52,663 nt of DNA, taken from an uncultured Gammaproteobacteria bacterium (lineage in GTDB: Bacteria; Pseudomonadota; Gammaproteobacteria; Poriferisulfidales; GCA-002705445). A model generated the notes under the pieces. The model saw only the letters and a program-made list of their open reading frames with translations. It had not been told where the DNA came from and searched no databases. Of the stretch, positions 43,706 to 52,663 are shown in pieces. The DNA lies in assembly GCA_913042035.1 (NCBI GenBank), contig CAJWIN010000003.1:1-52663 (forward strand), written 5' to 3'. Each line of letters opens with the position of its first letter. The first letter of the stretch is position 1. The position numbers were made by a program, and so were the translations under genes.

Positions 43706-45513
43706 ATATAAATGAAGCAGTAGAAAAGTTTTCGTCTGGCGAAAATCTGAAAAAAAACGAAATTAAAGAAGTATTTCTAAGTATTATGAATAATGAATGC
43801 AATGATGCTGAGATTATTGCTTTTTTGATGACACTTAAAACCAAAGGGGAAACCGTTGAAGAAATTGCAGGTGCTGCTGAAGTTTTAAGAGAAATGTGTC
43901 AAAAATTAAAATTAGGTTCAAACGAATTAGTTGATACCTGTGGAACTGGTGGAGATGGGCAAAATACTTTTAATATATCAACTGCTTCAGCTATTGTAGC
44001 TGCGGCTGCAGGTGTAAAAATTGCTAAACATGGAAATAAATCAATTTCTAGTAAATCAGGTAGTGCTGATCTTCTAGAATATTCAGGAATCAATATTGAT
44101 TTAGATGAAGAGCAAGCAAAAAAATGTTTTGATGACCACGGTATTACATTTATGTTTGCCCCAAAATATCATAAAGCAATGAAGAGTGTCTCAACTGTTA
44201 GAAAAAATATTAAAACAAGAACAATTTTTAATGTATTAGGACCACTGTCTAATCCTGCAAATGCAAATTTTCAAATTTTAGGAGTTTATGATAAAGATTT
44301 AATTTTGCCAATTGCTAAGGTATTAAAAGATATTGGCATACAAAAAGCTTTGGTGGTCCATTCGGAAGATGGGCTAGATGAAATATCTTGCGAAAAAAAT
44401 ACATATATTGCTGAACTAAAAGACGGTGATATCTCTGAATATATAATTAACCCTAAAGATTTTGACTTGCAAGTTACATCACTAGAGTCTTTAAAAGTAA
44501 ATACAGTTGAAGAAAGTTATAAAATTTTTATCAAGATGTTAAATAATCAAGACGAAGCAGCAGTTAATATTGTGAGTTTAAATGCTGGTGCTGCAATATA
44601 TATTTCTGGAATTAAAAATGATCTAAAAAGTGGGATAGAGCTTGCAAAAGAAATTATTATTTCTGGGGCAGCTATGAAAAAATTTGATGATATTAAAAAT
44701 TCTATGCCCGAAAAAGTAAAAACACCTAAAATTTTGGAAGAAATTTTGGAAAATAAAGCAAAAGAGGTAGCCGAGAGAAAGACAAAAATTTCGGTTCAGG
44801 ATTTAAAAGAAATTGACTATATGAGATCTTTAAGAAGAGATTTTAAAACTGCATTGCTAAATAAAATTAGACAAAATAAAAATGCCGTAATCGCAGAAAT
44901 AAAGAGAGCTTCTCCTTCCATGGGGGAACTTAATATGAATATTATTCCAGCAAAGGTTGCTTCTGATTTTGAAACTATGGGGGCTGCTTGTTTATCTGTC
45001 TTGACAGATGCTAAATACTTTAAAGGTTCAGGCGCTATTTTAGAAATGGCAAAAAAAGGTTGTGGCATTCCTGTCCTTAGAAAAGATTTCATTATAGATG
45101 AATATCAAATAGACGAATCTGTAACCATGGGTGCTGATTGTATATTACTTATAGCTTCTGCTTTAGAAAAAAACTTAATGAAAAAACTTTATGACGCTGC
45201 AAAAATTAGAGATTTAGACGTAATTGTTGAAGTTCATGATCATAGTGAGCTTGAAGTTGCTCTTGAAATAGATTGCGACATTATTGGTATTAATAATAGA
45301 AATCTTCATACCTTTGAAGTTGATTTAAATACGACAGTGAATTTAATACAATATTTAAAGAATGATCAGCTTGTAATTGCCGAGAGTGGAATTCATACTA
45401 GTCAAGACGTTAAAAAAATGAATGATTGTGGAATAAATACTTTTTTAGTTGGTGAGTCATTCATGACCACAAATGATCCGATAAATAAATTTAAAGAAAT
45501 ATTTATAAAGTAA
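43702..45513 (+). CDS. trpDC: Fused anthranilate phosphoribosyltransferase (TrpD) - indole-3-glycerol-phosphate synthase (TrpC)
   Basis: N-half '[39 protein letters not shown]...[10 protein letters not shown]'; C-half '[17 protein letters not shown]...[14 protein letters not shown]...[14 protein letters not shown]...[11 protein letters not shown]'; one continuous 603-aa frame. Confidence 0.96.
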
Positions 45514-45514
45514 A

Positions 45515-46087
45515 TTGAAAATTGTAATTAAAAATTGTTCGCAGTGTGGATCAAGTAATATCAATTTTTCTGTTCCTTCCGGCGATAACAGAAATAGATA
45601 TATTTGCAAAGACTGTGGTTACATTCATTATCAAAATCCTAATATTGTTGCGGGCTCTATTTTAGAATGGAACAATAAAATCTTATTGTGCAAAAGAGCT
45701 ATAGAGCCTAGAATTAATTGCTGGACATTGCCCGCTGGTTTTTTGGAAAATGAAGAACCTCTAGAAGCTGGAGCTGCAAGAGAATGTATTGAAGAAGCAA
45801 ACGCATACTCTGATGATATGAGAATTTTCTCTATCTATAGTCTAGTGCATATCAGTCAAATATACATTATGTATTATGGAACTCTGAAGGATGGCAAACA
45901 TAGTCCAGGCCCAGAAGAATCTTTTGACACAAAATTATATAGTAAAGATGAAATCCCTTGGAGTGAATTAGCTTTTCCAATTATTAATGAGAATCTTGAA
46001 TTATTTTATGAAAAAGGGATAACAAATACTCCTCATACAGGAAGTGTTGATAAAGTTAACAACGAATACATAATCACTAGAAACTAA
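45515..46087 (+). CDS. NUDIX hydrolase with N-terminal zinc ribbon (TTG start)
   Basis: 'CSQCGSSNINF...YICKDCGYIHYQNPNIVAGSI' ribbon; Nudix box 'GFLENEEPLEAGAARECIEEANA'. Confidence 0.9.
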   Translation: MKIVIKNCSQCGSSNINFSVPSGDNRNRYICKDCGYIHYQNPNIVAGSILEWNNKILLCKRAIEPRINCWTLPAGFLENEEPLEAGAARECIEEANAYSDDMRIFSIYSLVHISQIYIMYYGTLKDGKHSPGPEESFDTKLYSKDEIPWSELAFPIINENLELFYEKGITNTPHTGSVDKVNNEYIITRN

Positions 46088-46091
46088 TTTA

Positions 46092-46280
46092 ATGGATATC
46101 AATGAAAAGGAATCTTATTGTCCTTACTGCGGAGAAGTCATCTCTTTGTTAATTGATGACTCAGTAAGTAGTCAAGAGTATGTAGAAGATTGTCAAGTGT
46201 GTTGCAGCCCAATCTTAATTAGTGTAGAAATTGATTATGAAGAAAATATATATATAAATACTAAAAAAGAAAACGAATAA
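46092..46280 (+). CDS. CPXCG motif-containing cysteine-rich small protein
   Basis: 'YCPYCGEVISLLIDDS...YVEDCQVCCSPI'. Confidence 0.88.
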   Translation: MDINEKESYCPYCGEVISLLIDDSVSSQEYVEDCQVCCSPILISVEIDYEENIYINTKKENE

Positions 46281-46906
46281 TGAATTTAACATTGATCTTA
46301 ACAGTTGCGCCACCGCTTCTTATCGTAGCGTATATTATCAAGGCTGATAAGTTTCCAGAACCTACGGGTTTATGTATCAGTACTTTTCTTTTAGGCTGTT
46401 TACTATGTATTCCTGCCGCATCACTCAATAATTATTTTATCCCTGATCTAAGTTATGCATATTTAGCCGGTTTTACTGAAGAATCATTGAAATTCGCTGC
46501 TATTTATTTTTACATTAGAAAAAAAACAGATTTTGATGAGCCTATGGATGCTATTGTATATGGTACACTGATATCACTTGGTTTCGCTACGCTCGAAAAT
46601 TTTCAATATGTCTATAATGCAGGAAATCCAGATTTCATCGCAATACTAAGATCTTTTACTGCAATACCGCTTCATGCTTGCTGCGGAATTATTATGGGTT
46701 ATTATTTTGGCCTTTATATATTTAAAGATAGAAATAAATTAAATCTTTTTAAGTCTTTATTCTTTGCTATATCTTTTCACGCTACATATAATTATTTTGC
46801 CACAAGAAATGTTTTATTAATGTTTATAGTCCTAATAATACTAATTTCATTTGCTAGGAAATTACACAAATTATTAAAAATTGAGCAATTGTCGAAACAA
46901 AATTAG
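46280..46906 (+). CDS. PrsW family intramembrane metalloprotease
   Basis: Polytopic; 'AGFTEESLKF' (EExxK-like), 'GFATLENFQYV', 'AIPLHACCGIIMGYYFG', 'SFHATYNY'. Confidence 0.88.
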   Translation: MNLTLILTVAPPLLIVAYIIKADKFPEPTGLCISTFLLGCLLCIPAASLNNYFIPDLSYAYLAGFTEESLKFAAIYFYIRKKTDFDEPMDAIVYGTLISLGFATLENFQYVYNAGNPDFIAILRSFTAIPLHACCGIIMGYYFGLYIFKDRNKLNLFKSLFFAISFHATYNYFATRNVLLMFIVLIILISFARKLHKLLKIEQLSKQN

Positions 46907-46915
46907 AAAAACTTC

Positions 46916-47629
46916 TTATAATTTTAAATAGGGGTCATCTGCAAAATCTAGTGTAAGCATTAAACGCTTCTGCTCATTTTTTTCTACCTTTGGTGAGCGA
47001 TGAATTAGTCCAGCGCCCTCATTACCTTTCCAGCTTTCGCCTTTTAAAAGACCAACATGCCCTGCACTAAGTTGTTCAATGTCATCATATTTTTTAAATA
47101 TTCCTGTATCTTCGTCAAGTTTTCCATGACTTACTTCGCCTAATTTACTTCGATCTGCTAAGTGGTGTGGAAGCCACTCAGTTGCAGTACCATGATAAGT
47201 AGTTATCAAGCGACAAGGTACTCTATCGACATGGAATCTAGGGCACATTGCATAATCAAGTATTTTTAATTTAAATACTGCTTGCTTTAAATCAAATAAA
47301 TCACAAAATATATAAACTAACTCTGAAATATCTTTACTTAAACCTAAGACATCTTCATTCAATTCAATTTTTGAATCTAGCATTTCATTAACATCTGTCG
47401 ATTTAATTACTTCAGAAATTTCAAGGTGCGGATAATTTTGAATAATATTATTTGCTGCAAGCGCAATTTTACTATTTAGCTTACGTTGCCAAATAGAGAT
47501 ATTAACTTGTTCCTGATAAATTTCAGATAATGCGGAAGAAGTATTTCCAATATAACAAGAACGATTTAAGGATGAAGGAATTTTTGGTTTAAAACAATAT
47601 TTAATTATATTCACGCACTTTCCTTCCAT
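46916..47629 (-). CDS. DUF1826-like protein (zinc-homeostasis associated)
   Basis: '[36 protein letters not shown]'; overlaps the 3' end of the COG0523 GTPase gene, as in known zinc-responsive loci. Confidence 0.8.
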
Positions 47630-48822
47630 TCATCTGGGAATGGGTCCGTAAATTTAGCCCAGTGATTTTTTCCTTGAAGTAAATCTTCATCAGACAAAAG
47701 ACATGCATCCAATTCCTTAAAAACCTGATCCTTATCTAATCCTTGGCCAATAAATACTATTTCTTGTCGCATATCACCAAACGGTTCTTCCCAATTTTCT
47801 TTAATTGAATCTAGAGAATCTTGATCTAGCGGCCATTGATCTTCTGGAACAGCTTTCCAAAACATGCCTGCAAAACCATAGCGTGCAATACCACCTGCTT
47901 GACTCCAATGCCCTGCAAACTGGGGTCTGGTTGCAAGCCAAAAATAACCTTTGGAACGAATAAGTTTGCCTGAGAGATTTTTATTATGCAGAAAATCAAA
48001 AAACTTTTGTGGATAGAACGGTTTTCTAGCTTTGTAGGCAAAACTACTTATTCCGTACTCTTCTGTTTCTGGAATATGTTCACCACGCATTTCTTTTAAC
48101 CAACCTGGTGCTTCTTCAGCCTTTTCAAAATCAAATAAACCGGTATTTAAAATTTCTTCAACATCAATTTCACCCTTAGAAATAGGAATAATTTTTGCGT
48201 GGGTGTTTAAAGTTTTTATAATTGCAATTAATTTTTTAACATCTTCTTTTTTAACTAAATCTGTCTTACTGATTAATAGAACATCAGCAAACTCAATTTG
48301 ATCAACCAATAAATCTGCTACGCTTCGCTCGTCTTCTTCACCTAAAGATTCTAACGACTCTCCAGCATCTTTTAAATATTTAGCTTCCTCATAATCTTTT
48401 AAGAAGTTCACTGCATCAACCACGGTTACCATTGTATCTAGTTTTGAAACATCTGATAATGAAACTCCATCTTCATCTGCAAAAGTAAAAGTTTCTGCAA
48501 CAGGCAAAGGCTCAGATATACCTGTCGATTCAATAACTAAATAATCAAAACGTCCTTCTTTTGCCAATTTATTTACTTCTAATAATAAATCTTCACGTAA
48601 AGTGCAACAAATACAACCATTACTCATTTCAACTAACTTTTCTTCTTTATGGCTAAGCTCCACTTCGTTTTGGATCATAGAGCTATCAATATTAATCTCA
48701 CTCATGTCGTTCACAATAACTGCAACCTTTTTGTCCTGCCTGTTATTTAATATATGAGTTAAGACTGTTGTTTTTCCAGCGCCAAGAAAGCCTGAAAGCA
48801 CAGTAACGGGTAATTTGTTCAT
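47611..48822 (-). CDS. COG0523 / CobW-family GTP-binding metallochaperone (ZigA-like)
   Basis: '[45 protein letters not shown]', metal-binding '[15 protein letters not shown]', 'SKTDLV'. Confidence 0.93.
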
Positions 48823-48850
48823 TGGAATCCACTCTTTTGAAATAAATAAT

Positions 48851-48867
48851 ATGTTATATTATAACAT
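48851..48867. promoter_or_regulatory. Putative Zur box upstream of the COG0523 GTPase/DUF1826 pair
   Basis: ATGTTATA-T-TATAACAT, perfect 8-bp arms around one base, matching the gammaproteobacterial Zur consensus core GTTATAwTATAAC; 29-45 nt upstream of the start codon. Confidence 0.85.
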
Positions 48868-48977
48868 TATATAAGTGGTTTCAAATTATTTTGGAAAAAG
48901 AGTGCTACTGACTAATTGAATTTATTTTTTTGTTTTTATTCCCGTCTCTTTTTTGGAAAATTTAATTAACTTTATAT

Positions 48978-49343
48978 TTATAAAATTTTTGTTTCTTTAA
49001 GATCTTTCCATTCATTATCACTATAAATTTCAATTTTCGTTGTTTCTAAATTTACATCACCAGTTCCATCTTCAAATTCTGTTTTCTCATTATTGTGAGG
49101 ATTTTTCTTTGCCTGATCAATGTAATCATATTCACTCAAAGACTCTCCTTCCCATCTTGCATCAAGATCATCTACTACATCTTCCCATTTTTTTATGGTG
49201 GATGACTCACCATCGCTATCGAAAGATGCCTGACCATCTTCATATGATCTCTCACATTCTATGATAACTTCCTCAGCTGTTGGTAAACCCCAATGTGTTT
49301 CAGGCGAACACTCAAACTTAAAATATACTTTATAAGATGCCAT
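48978..49343 (-). CDS. Hypothetical acidic protein, 121 aa
   Basis: 'MASYKVYFKFECSPETHWGLPTAEEVIIECERSYEDGQ...'; downstream of and co-oriented with the KAP NTPase; no family recognised. Confidence 0.6.
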   Translation of the reverse strand: MASYKVYFKFECSPETHWGLPTAEEVIIECERSYEDGQASFDSDGESSTIKKWEDVVDDLDARWEGESLSEYDYIDQAKKNPHNNEKTEFEDGTGDVNLETTKIEIYSDNEWKDLKETKIL

Positions 49344-49440
49344 GATACTTCTTTAAATTCCTCGTAATCTTCATCTTTACTTATTATCTTTAAATATTAT
49401 GTTTACACAATAGTTTTATGCCTAAATTTTATTTAATGAT

Positions 49441-51531
49441 TCAACTAACTTCATAAGTATAATCTGGATCCAAATATTTTTTACAGGCCTCAACAATTTT
49501 AGGATTTTCAGGATTTTTATAATTAAGGTTTACTGTAACAGATGAAATAGTTCCTTTGGCGTAACTAATGTTCAGTCTTTTTTTCCAGTTCTCTGTTAGA
49601 GCCATGTCTGCGGAACTTTTTAATACCTTCAAATATTTTTCTTTATTTTCTTCATAAAATTTTAAACTTGGAATAACAAAGCCACATCTCTCGCTACCGC
49701 GAGTCGAATAATGTTTTGTTTCTACAAATTTTTTAATTACATAAGGTTTGTTATTCCCAACCATTGGCATTTTATAATCATTATCATAATGTCTCAAGAT
49801 ATCACAGTATATTTTTCCTTTTTCTTTACAACCACCAAACCCTAAAAGCTTATGTTTTTCTATGTAGCAAGTGATCTCTCCAGCATACATGATTTCTGCC
49901 TCCGGAAAATTCTCTTTAATATCATCATGCAGAACTCGAATAAATTTTGCTGCCTCTTCATCTAATTGTTGACTGGATGCCCATCCATCATCAGTTGGTT
50001 CACCTGTTTTATCTAGAAGCCAAGCATCTAAACCATCAAGATATCTTCGTTTATAAGCACCCTCTCGTTCTGGAAGTACTATTTGCCCTTGATCTGTGCT
50101 TGTAACGCTCGTAACAGATGTTTCATTTAAAATTTCTGCAATAATTGATCCAAGATCTTCTTGTTTATCAGCCAGCAGATCATCTTTTATATAACTAAAG
50201 AATTTTGAAATATCTGCTGCTCTTGGCTTAAGTCTAGGGCGACCATAGCAGATTCTAAATAAAGCTTGTTCCCACTCTTCATTGAAATCATCGGTTTTCT
50301 TCGCTGTTTCAAACTCAGTATCAAATATTTTCTTCGTTTCTTCCGAGGTTTTATGGGCGTGCGCTCCTGCCCTTTCTTCAGAGCGATTAGTTTCTTTAAA
50401 GGCTAATTCATCATTCCACAAAATAAAATTTGGTTCTCTTGAAAGTAAACTATAAACCGGCGGAAAGGCGATTTGTAAACACAATAAAGCAAACAGAATA
50501 AATTTTTCATCTTCCTGATTGATTGATTTTGCATCATCATTTGGATCAGATGTTATCCCTTCTTTTTTATTTTTCTCTTGTGCTATCTGTTTTTCTTCCG
50601 AAAAAATCTGAATCAAAGAAACTGAATTCACTAAACGCTTTATTGATCTTGGGTTTCCACCGATTGTTCGCATGATAATTTCACGTACAGCCAGATCGTC
50701 CAAGCCATCTCCTTCTACAAATCCAATTTCTACCAACAATGAATTTACATACTGGCCAATATTATATTGACCCATAGGCATCATAAATGGTAATTGAATA
50801 ATCTTATCAAAAAACGCTCTGAACTCCCATTCATTCTCAGCTGTTTGCTTACCAAATTTATCTTCTAACCCCTTTACTACAACTTGATAATCAATAGCTA
50901 AAATAAATACACACTTTGGAACACTAAAAATATTTTTAAGAAGCTCCAAAATAGCAACTGCATTCTTTGGTTCAATTCGATCGAGATCGTCAACATAAAT
51001 AATAACTTTTTCATATGGGTTAGTATCTCGTTTTGCCATCTCCTCAACAACACTAGTAAGCTGCTTTCTTAAAGCTGATATGCTAACACCGCTTGATGAC
51101 GTAAGTTCTTCTGCAACTTTACCAGCTTCTAAACCTAAAGTAGCAGAAGCTCCAATTCTCAAAGCTCCTTTTAAGATAACCTGAGCACCTTTTTTAATTT
51201 TTTCGACTCGTTCTTTGTTTGGATCTGCTTCTACTAGCTCGTCAATCATTCTGGTGACAATTTTAAGAAGCGCTTCTTCTGGGGAAGACAATAGAGAATA
51301 CTCCCAAGCATTTATCCATATTTGTTTTACTTTTTCTTGTGATTCAAACGAGTGATGAATTGAATTTATTAAAGATGTTTTCCCGCTTCCCCATTCACCT
51401 TGAATACCTACGGTGATTGGAGTACTAGTTTCATTAATAAACTTAATAAGAGAGTTAGTATGTAATTCAATACCTAGATTGTCTTTCTTTCCACCAGGAT
51501 TAGCTTCGTCTATTATTCCAATCTTTTTCAT
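49441..51531 (-). CDS. KAP family P-loop NTPase with additional C-terminal region
   Basis: Walker A 'GIQGEWGSGKTSLINSI', Walker B 'KVIIYVDDLDRIEPKNAVAILELLKNIFSVPKCVFILAID', 'GGNPRSIKRLVNS'. Confidence 0.88.
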   Translation of the reverse strand: MKKIGIIDEANPGGKKDNLGIELHTNSLIKFINETSTPITVGIQGEWGSGKTSLINSIHHSFESQEKVKQIWINAWEYSLLSSPEEALLKIVTRMIDELVEADPNKERVEKIKKGAQVILKGALRIGASATLGLEAGKVAEELTSSSGVSISALRKQLTSVVEEMAKRDTNPYEKVIIYVDDLDRIEPKNAVAILELLKNIFSVPKCVFILAIDYQVVVKGLEDKFGKQTAENEWEFRAFFDKIIQLPFMMPMGQYNIGQYVNSLLVEIGFVEGDGLDDLAVREIIMRTIGGNPRSIKRLVNSVSLIQIFSEEKQIAQEKNKKEGITSDPNDDAKSINQEDEKFILFALLCLQIAFPPVYSLLSREPNFILWNDELAFKETNRSEERAGAHAHKTSEETKKIFDTEFETAKKTDDFNEEWEQALFRICYGRPRLKPRAADISKFFSYIKDDLLADKQEDLGSIIAEILNETSVTSVTSTDQGQIVLPEREGAYKRRYLDGLDAWLLDKTGEPTDDGWASSQQLDEEAAKFIRVLHDDIKENFPEAEIMYAGEITCYIEKHKLLGFGGCKEKGKIYCDILRHYDNDYKMPMVGNNKPYVIKKFVETKHYSTRGSERCGFVIPSLKFYEENKEKYLKVLKSSADMALTENWKKRLNISYAKGTISSVTVNLNYKNPENPKIVEACKKYLDPDYTYEVS

Positions 51532-51633: not shown

Positions 51634-51945
51634 ATGTTAAGGTGGGCAATTAGAGCTATTGCAGCAAGCAAATACAAGAACCAAGCTATTAAAGAATCTG
51701 GCCAAGCTACAAGAAAGGCTAAAGATGCTATGGGAAAATTTAGATATGCAAAAAACGAGAGGGATAATACAAAAAAACTAAACTATATGGCTGAGGGTAT
51801 GAGCTATTTAGCTGAGGCTGTGAATCATAATTCAAACGCAATTGATCCTTTAGCAGAAATGTCTTGGGTAGCTTCATTATTGGTGGAGAGCATACAAAAA
51901 AACTTAGACGAACAAACTAAAGATATTGTGTCAAAATTAAAATAA
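51634..51945 (+). CDS. Hypothetical helical protein, 103 aa
   Basis: Continuous ORF preceded by 'aggggggatagga' purine-rich ribosome-binding region; no recognised family. Confidence 0.5.
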   Translation: MLRWAIRAIAASKYKNQAIKESGQATRKAKDAMGKFRYAKNERDNTKKLNYMAEGMSYLAEAVNHNSNAIDPLAEMSWVASLLVESIQKNLDEQTKDIVSKLK

Positions 51946-51959
51946 ATAAAAATTTTAAA

Positions 51960-52451
51960 ATGAACGGCTTTAAAGATTTACCAAAACTATACTGCGATAT
52001 GGATCAGGTGCTTTGTGATTTTATCACAAGTGCAAATTCTGTTTTGCAAGATGATTTTACAAAAGTCAATAATGTAATACGGTGGAAATCAATTAACGAT
52101 GTTGCGGACTTTTGGGAAAACTTACCTTGGATGCCAGACGGAAAAGAACTTCATGAAATGATAATAAAATATAATCCTTATATATTATCAGCCTATTCTG
52201 AAAGAGATAAGAATTGCATAGAGGGAAAGTATAAATGGCTAAAGAATAATACCAGTATACCAAGAGCACGTGTAAATCTTGTTAAACGAGCAGAAAAAAA
52301 AACATATGCAACATTTAATGGACGACCTAATGTGCTTATAGATGATTATCTTAAGAATATTGAAGATTGGAAAGACAATGGTGGCATTGCGATACATCAT
52401 GCAAATACAGAAAGAACTGTGCATGAACTTTCAAATTTAGGTTTTATATAA
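51960..52451 (+). CDS. HAD superfamily / 5'(3')-deoxyribonucleotidase (NT5C)-like protein, phage-type
   Basis: 'LYCDMDQVLCDFITSANSVL' (DxD), 'PYILSAYSERD', 'NVLIDDYLKNIEDWKDNGGIAIHHAN'. Confidence 0.75.
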   Translation: MNGFKDLPKLYCDMDQVLCDFITSANSVLQDDFTKVNNVIRWKSINDVADFWENLPWMPDGKELHEMIIKYNPYILSAYSERDKNCIEGKYKWLKNNTSIPRARVNLVKRAEKKTYATFNGRPNVLIDDYLKNIEDWKDNGGIAIHHANTERTVHELSNLGFI

Positions 52452-52662
52452 AAATGCTGTGAGTACAAATTAAGCATAATTTGCAAAATGATAATGCATT
52501 ATCATTAAATTTAATCAAATTACCTGTTGAGAATCCATGAGCTGCTGATGTAGTTACTGTTAATATACCAACAGCACCATTATAATCCGCACCATTTGGA
52601 GTATGTGACGTTGCACCAGAAAGAATGCCATACTCGTACTGACCAAAAAGTTCGAACTTTTT
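52444..52662 (-). pseudogene. 3' remnant of a phage structural-type protein, open at the right edge, apparently truncated
   Basis: Minus-frame translation KKFELFGQYEYGILSGATSHTPNGADYNGAVGILTVTTSAAHGFSTGNLIKFNDNALSF|CKLCLICTHSIFI*; the 'YN..VGILTVTT...HGFSTGNLIKFNDNALSF' repeat style is typical of marine T4-like phage structural proteins; resemblance ends after LSF. Confidence 0.55.
52487..52506. repeat. Perfect 20-bp palindrome AATGATAATGCATTATCATT
   Basis: Direct read; self-reverse-complementary over 20 nt. Confidence 0.95.
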
Positions 52663-52663
52663 G

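What the first reader, a model, noticed from the sequence alone, without database searches (positions are those of the whole stretch)
48978..51531. KAP P-loop NTPase with an unknown acidic partner: candidate defence/conflict module
The 696-aa KAP-type NTPase has clear Walker motifs, no obvious TM insert in the visible sequence, and a long C-terminal region ('...FPEAEIMYAGEITCYIEKHKLLGFGG...SERCGFVIPSLKFYEENKEKYLKVL') I cannot assign. It is followed by an acidic 121-aa protein of unknown family. KAP NTPases are linked to phage exclusion (PifA-type) and other conflict systems, and this pair sits beside phage-derived sequence. This is the most plausible place in the window for an undescribed system.
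Basis: partly seen in the sequence, partly recalled or inferred. Interest (0 to 1): 0.65.

Follow-up and report, generated by a model that had tools for sequence, protein, structure and literature searches.

The report
KAP NTPase with swappable C-terminal domain
A marine bacterium carries, on an inserted island, an ATP-powered protein of a family known from virus defence; its relatives keep one engine but exchange their tail domain and often sit next to DNA-cutting defence genes, while the small acidic neighbour proposed as its partner looks like a bystander.

Summary
A 696-aa KAP P-loop NTPase (49441-51531, minus) is followed by an acidic 121-aa ORF (48978-49343). The 121-aa gene is an orphan: no homologue in phages, plasmids, viral contigs, 93 relative genomes or beside any of 20 KAP relatives. 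The proposed two-gene module is therefore not supported.

The NTPase belongs to a rare, patchy subfamily, mostly in marine bacteria (SAR86, SAR116, other Alphaproteobacteria, a few others). Residues 1-485 are 43-72% identical to the window protein and end in a conserved TSVTSVTS linker. The C-terminal domain is exchanged between relatives: DUF5655-like here by predicted fold, DUF4268-like or unassigned elsewhere.

Most relatives (14 of 21 loci) lie near defence-type genes: PvuRts1I-SRA and PD-T4-3/CMoRE nucleases, DUF2779/Cas4-like nucleases, a methylase-HNH protein, WYL regulators. The window copy sits on an insertion 5' of cobW, where two sister genomes have bolA-tatD; the insertion also carries a 103-aa island gene shared with SAR86 and phage-derived sequence, and runs off the contig.

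Best reading: a KAP-ring anti-phage ATPase with an interchangeable C-terminal sensor. Function is inferred, not shown. New variant of a known kind.

The parts
49441..51531 (-). KAP P-loop NTPase, 696 aa: NTPase core (about residues 1-310), helical region (about 310-475), conserved linker (474-495), DUF5655-like C-terminal domain (about 496-696)
50077..51531 (-). Constant part, residues 1-485: KAP core, helical region and TSVTSVTSTD linker, 43-72% identical in relatives
49441..50076 (-). Exchangeable part: C-terminal 211 aa, DUF5655-like fold; homologous in 4 relatives and remotely in SAR86 KAPs, replaced in others
48978..49343 (-). 121-aa acidic orphan ORF, probably a real gene; not a conserved partner
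51634..51945 (+). 103-aa basic protein of a recurring island family (49-67% identical), found in 6 of 8 SAR86 genomes with the KAP, each time within 3.2 kb of its core; divergent from the KAP gene here
51960..52451 (+). Phage-type 5'-3' deoxyribonucleotidase (HAD/NT5C), island cargo
52453..52663 (-). Fragment of a cyanophage-like structural/tail-fibre protein, cut by the contig end
48886..52663 (.). Inserted island: colinearity with sister genomes stops at about 48885, 5' of cobW, where two sisters have bolA-tatD; right end not on the contig

Best explanation
The gene encodes a soluble KAP-family ring NTPase that acts in defence against phages, most likely as a self-contained sensor-actuator that can work with whatever nucleases share its island. 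The constant N-terminal 485 residues (P-loop core plus helical region) would form a ring driven by ATP. The exchangeable C-terminal domain (DUF5655-like here), tethered by a conserved flexible linker, would recognise the trigger, most likely phage nucleic acid; ATP-driven rearrangement would then block phage replication directly or hand the DNA to an effector nuclease. Shown here: the domain anatomy, the exchange of C-terminal domains on a constant core, the island setting and the recurrent defence neighbours of relatives. Inferred: ring assembly (from QatA and RdrA), nucleic-acid sensing and anti-phage activity. The 121-aa and 103-aa neighbours are island cargo on present evidence, not shown to be subunits.
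For: KAP core at E=1.2e-38; PADLOC's best matches are PifA, PDC-S20 and QatA, confined to the NTPase part. Foldseek's top PDB hits for the full model are the heptameric RdrA ring of the RADAR defence system (E=1.7e-6), then Orc/Cdc6 DNA-binding ATPases. [quoted passage not shown] C-terminal exchange: L020, L015 and L016 have closer cores (68, 65, 64%) than L014 and L017 (57, 53%), yet L020 and L015 carry unrelated C-termini and L016 only a very remote one, while L014 and L017 share the window's; L020 falls inside a 100/99-supported clade with type A members. Defence neighbours: PvuRts1I-SRA (PADLOC mREase_II, E 2e-76 to 1e-81) in L016, L022, L042, L046; PD-T4-3 (E 7e-29 to 1e-35) in L013, L015, L017, L042; DUF2779/Cas4-like nuclease 4-28 nt after the KAP gene in L043, L045, L046; N6/N4 methylase-HNH in L047; WYL/WCX regulators in L017, L018, L024. 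Patchy occurrence: 8 of 203 genomes of the SAR86 order, 2 of 369 in the window's class, 1 of 385 in the class of G389, query genomes included.
Against: No phage challenge has been done on any member. The window copy has no recognised nuclease nearby, and none of the island nucleases was found in the 720 kb assembled for its genome (73.5% complete). 7 of 21 loci show no recognised defence gene, some being short contigs. RdrA similarity is remote (13% identity, TM about 0.3). The DUF5655 assignment rests on a predicted fold (E=7.9e-5) and one sub-threshold Pfam hit in a relative. What DUF5655 domains bind is unknown.
Confidence: 0.5

Rival explanations
1. The KAP works as an obligate pair with a nuclease (DUF2779/Cas4-like in SAR86), the ring loading or activating the nuclease; in the window the nuclease is beyond the contig end or replaced.
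For: DUF2779 follows the KAP gene by 4-28 nt in L043, L045 and L046, one gene later in L044, as a truncated gene in L047, and after a decayed KAP in L077. DUF2779 and KAP co-occur in SAR86 genomes (Fisher p=4e-4); in three of the four genomes with both they lie together.
Against: Only two of ten other KAP genomes tested have DUF2779, there within the island but not adjacent (L013, L015), and the window genome has none. DUF2779 also occurs without KAP in the same SAR86 hotspot (L074).
Confidence: 0.2
2. The first reader's module: KAP plus the acidic 121-aa protein as a two-component defence system (for example an inhibitor or trigger).
For: Same strand, 97 nt apart, coding-like composition.
Against: No homologue of the 121-aa protein anywhere searched and none beside 20 KAP relatives; four close relatives with the same C-terminal type lack it.
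Confidence: 0.07
3. The KAP serves the island or a mobile element (maintenance, transfer, superinfection exclusion) rather than host defence.
For: Island setting, phage-derived genes alongside, rarity and patchiness.
Against: No integrase, relaxase or replication gene seen beside it in the window; no member in IMG/VR viral contigs by protein or profile and only remote KAP cores in phage records; neighbours in relatives are restriction-type nucleases.
Confidence: 0.13
4. A host housekeeping or stress NTPase unrelated to phages, carried by chance near defence genes.
For: Some loci (L020, L021, L023, L048) show no defence gene within about 6 kb; L024 has a vWA-PP2C-kinase group of a kind I know from stress-response loci.
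Against: At most a few percent of genomes in each group carry it, and the window copy is absent from the same site in sister genomes.
Confidence: 0.1

Closest known systems
QatA (KAP NTPase of qatABCD)
   Same: KAP core (NCBIfam QatA 111 bits, E=5.7e-32), soluble, C-terminal domain of unknown kind
   Different: Far below the QatA cut-off of 600 bits; no qatB, qatC or qatD next to it; match mainly in the NTPase part
PifA (F-plasmid phage exclusion)
   Same: KAP core, PADLOC E=1.2e-31 over residues 9-306
   Different: Only 307 of 720 model positions matched; C-terminal part unrelated at this sensitivity
RdrA (RADAR)
   Same: Nearest solved structure: AAA+ ring ATPase with an additional C-terminal domain
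   Different: 13% identity, TM about 0.3; no RdrB deaminase nearby; different C-terminal domain
Tmn
   Same: KAP-family defence protein (PMC11846954)
   Different: Tmn has transmembrane domains; none here
DUF5655 domain proteins
   Same: C-terminal fold: best BFVD match is a DUF5655 phage protein, E=7.9e-5, prob 1.00
   Different: Window sequence does not reach the Pfam model; no solved structure matches significantly
GmrSD with DUF4268
   Same: DUF4268, mostly associated with GmrSD (PMC4619093), marginally matches the C-terminal domain of the L015 relative
   Different: No DUF262/DUF1524; the window copy does not carry DUF4268

Membership tests
KAP P-loop NTPase (PF07693) | KAP domain above the curated cut-off, Walker A and B with DDLDR | tested here: met
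   133.6 bits against 20; motifs
QatA / qatABCD | QatA equivalog cut-off (600 bits) | tested here: not met
   111.2 bits
QatA / qatABCD | qatB, qatC (QueC-like) and qatD (TatD) beside it | tested here: not met
   Neighbours are a 121-aa orphan, cobW, a 103-aa protein and a deoxyribonucleotidase; contig ends 1.1 kb upstream of the KAP start
PifA | Full-length match to the PifA model | tested here: not met
   Positions 9-315 of 720 only
Tmn | Transmembrane domains | tested here: not met
   Maximum hydropathy 1.11 in the insert region
RADAR / RdrA | RdrA with adjacent RdrB deaminase | tested here: not met
   No deaminase among the neighbours; no RdrA model among PADLOC hits
RADAR / RdrA | Heptameric ring | not testable with these tools
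   Only a single-chain model could be made
DUF5655 | Pfam match above the cut-off | tested here: inconclusive
   Window: none; relative L017: 19.9 bits against 24; fold match E=7.9e-5
Two-gene KAP plus 121-aa module | Co-occurrence of the two genes | tested here: not met
Anti-phage system | Reduced phage plating on expression | not testable with these tools
   Needs an experiment

The most novel reading that the evidence does not exclude
A modular KAP defence family in marine bacteria: one conserved ring ATPase with a conserved junction linker onto which different C-terminal recognition domains (DUF5655-like, DUF4268-like, others) are swapped, working with modified-cytosine nucleases (PvuRts1I, PD-T4-3/CMoRE) of the same islands, so that the ring senses or presents hypermodified phage DNA.
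Probability: 0.15. Interest if true: 0.75.

Novelty: new variant of a known kind. Interest (0 to 1): 0.45.

Why it matters
KAP NTPases recur in phage defence (PifA, QatA, Tmn), but what they sense is unknown. A subfamily with a nearly constant core, a fixed junction and swapped C-terminal domains gives a direct way to ask whether the C-terminal domain sets phage specificity: exchange the domains and read which phages are blocked. It also points to defence hotspots in streamlined marine bacteria such as SAR86.

Tried and rejected
Phage origin of the KAP gene: no relative in IMG/VR by protein or profile, only remote KAP cores in phage records. The 121-aa protein as a conserved partner: rejected. 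The 103-aa gene as a KAP-specific partner: co-occurrence in SAR86 is strong (6 of 8, Fisher p=9e-7) but it also stands without KAP in the same hotspot (L074, L078, L079) and elsewhere (L073, L075, L076), so it marks islands, not the KAP. Transmembrane insert: rejected. PDB sequence search with core and C-terminal profiles: nothing significant. C-terminal domain against PDB structures: nothing significant. Homology between the DUF5655-like and DUF4268-like C-termini: none by profile comparison. GatB tail of L020 (E=7e-14): that contig has ambiguous bases, so a chimera is not excluded. Rest of the window's genome for island nucleases, a second KAP or the island's other border: none. Promoter and terminator scan of the region: no more sites than in shuffles.

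Full report
Observation. Both genes are present as described. The 696-aa protein is a KAP NTPase (PF07693, E=1.2e-38, residues 26-308) with intact Walker motifs and no transmembrane insert. The 121-aa ORF is acidic and coding-like. Beyond the 121-aa gene lies cobW; on the other side of the KAP are a 103-aa gene, a phage-type deoxyribonucleotidase and a cyanophage-like structural fragment at the contig end.

Island. The window is contig C3 of G000. In two sister genomes (G003, G009) and on contig C25 of G000 itself, cobW is preceded by bolA and tatD. In the window colinearity stops at about 48885, just 5' of the cobW promoter, and the 121-aa, KAP, 103-aa and phage-type genes stand there instead. 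A third sister (G010) has yet other genes there. The right border is not on the contig and was not found in the rest of the 720-kb assembly.

Family. A genome scan gave 12 relatives and later searches eight more loci, counting the decayed copy of L077: 21 loci with the window. It is rare: 8 of 203 genomes of the SAR86 order, 2 of 369 in the window's class, 1 of 385 in another class, query genomes included. Residues 1-485 are 43-72% identical across relatives and end in a conserved TSVTSVTSTD linker that has low confidence in the model.

C-terminal exchange. After the linker the proteins diverge in kind. The window, L024, L013, L014 and L017 share one domain (29-40% identical to the window). 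SAR86 members have a remote relative of it (hhalign probability 97%, E=1.4e-11). L015 and L019 share a different domain, marginally DUF4268 in L015. L020 and L018 differ again. Core identity and C-terminal type do not go together, and L020 lies inside a strongly supported clade of mainly type A members. Domain exchange is the simplest reading; parts of the tree are poorly resolved.

Structure. The full model (14 sequences, mean pLDDT 73) matches the RdrA ring of RADAR best (E=1.7e-6), then Orc/Cdc6. The C-terminal domain alone (pLDDT 82, pTM 0.80) matches a DUF5655 phage protein (E=7.9e-5); nothing in the PDB matches it significantly.

Neighbours. 14 of 21 loci carry a recognised defence-type gene within about 6 kb: PvuRts1I-SRA, PD-T4-3, DUF2779/Cas4-like, methylase-HNH, WYL/WCX regulators or a second PifA-like KAP. 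In SAR86, DUF2779 directly follows the KAP gene in three loci and stands close by in three more. PD-T4-3 is now called CMoRE, which degrades 5hmC- or 5ghmC-modified DNA (PMC12923530); PvuRts1I enzymes cut 5hmC DNA (my own knowledge); DUF4268 is mostly found with GmrSD, which targets glucosylated hmC DNA (PMC4619093). The modified-cytosine theme is suggestive only: the window copy has no such nuclease beside it.

Partner question. The 121-aa protein has no homologue in phages, plasmids, viral contigs, 93 relative genomes, or any fetched locus. The gene that does recur with the KAP is the 103-aa one on the other side (65% identical in SAR86 L022; in 14 of 203 SAR86 genomes, 6 of the 8 with KAP, each within 3.2 kb), but it also occurs without KAP.

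Mechanism. From QatA (DNA-binding, hepta- or octameric; PMC13279940) and RdrA (heptamer whose C-terminal domain its authors suggest as sensor; PMC9994260), I infer a ring ATPase whose C-terminal domain senses infection. Ring formation, nucleic-acid sensing and defence are inferred; anatomy, exchange and setting are shown.

Verdict. A new variant of a known kind: a KAP defence-type NTPase subfamily with interchangeable C-terminal domains, not the two-gene module proposed.

Noticed in passing
L042-L047, L074, L077-L080: SAR86 hotspot between a hydroxyisobutyrate-dehydrogenase-like gene and MazG-like/RpiR/UvrD-like genes holds varying sets of KAP, DUF2779, PvuRts1I-SRA, methylase-HNH, GIY-YIG and 103-aa genes; L077 has a decayed KAP (101 aa left) before an intact DUF2779.
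   Followed up: partly
L024:8602-14037: A second, PifA-like KAP beside a vWA, PP2C phosphatase and protein kinase group.
   Followed up: no
window 45000-48885 and L069 (G000:C25): G000 holds this locus twice at about 78% DNA identity, so the bin may mix two species, or the segment is duplicated.
   Followed up: partly
window 48852-48866: Palindrome TGTTATATTATAACA upstream of cobW, kept in sister genomes; looks like a Zur-type operator (not tested).
   Followed up: no
L021:4513-5946, L022:4531-5955, L023:4496-5968: A 474-490 aa protein stands divergently upstream of the KAP gene in three SAR86 genomes; no Pfam hit in the two copies scanned.
   Followed up: no
L016:5986-11149: KAP gene followed in series by a 743-aa AAA protein and a PvuRts1I-SRA nuclease, 38 and 32 nt apart: a possible operon.
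   Followed up: no
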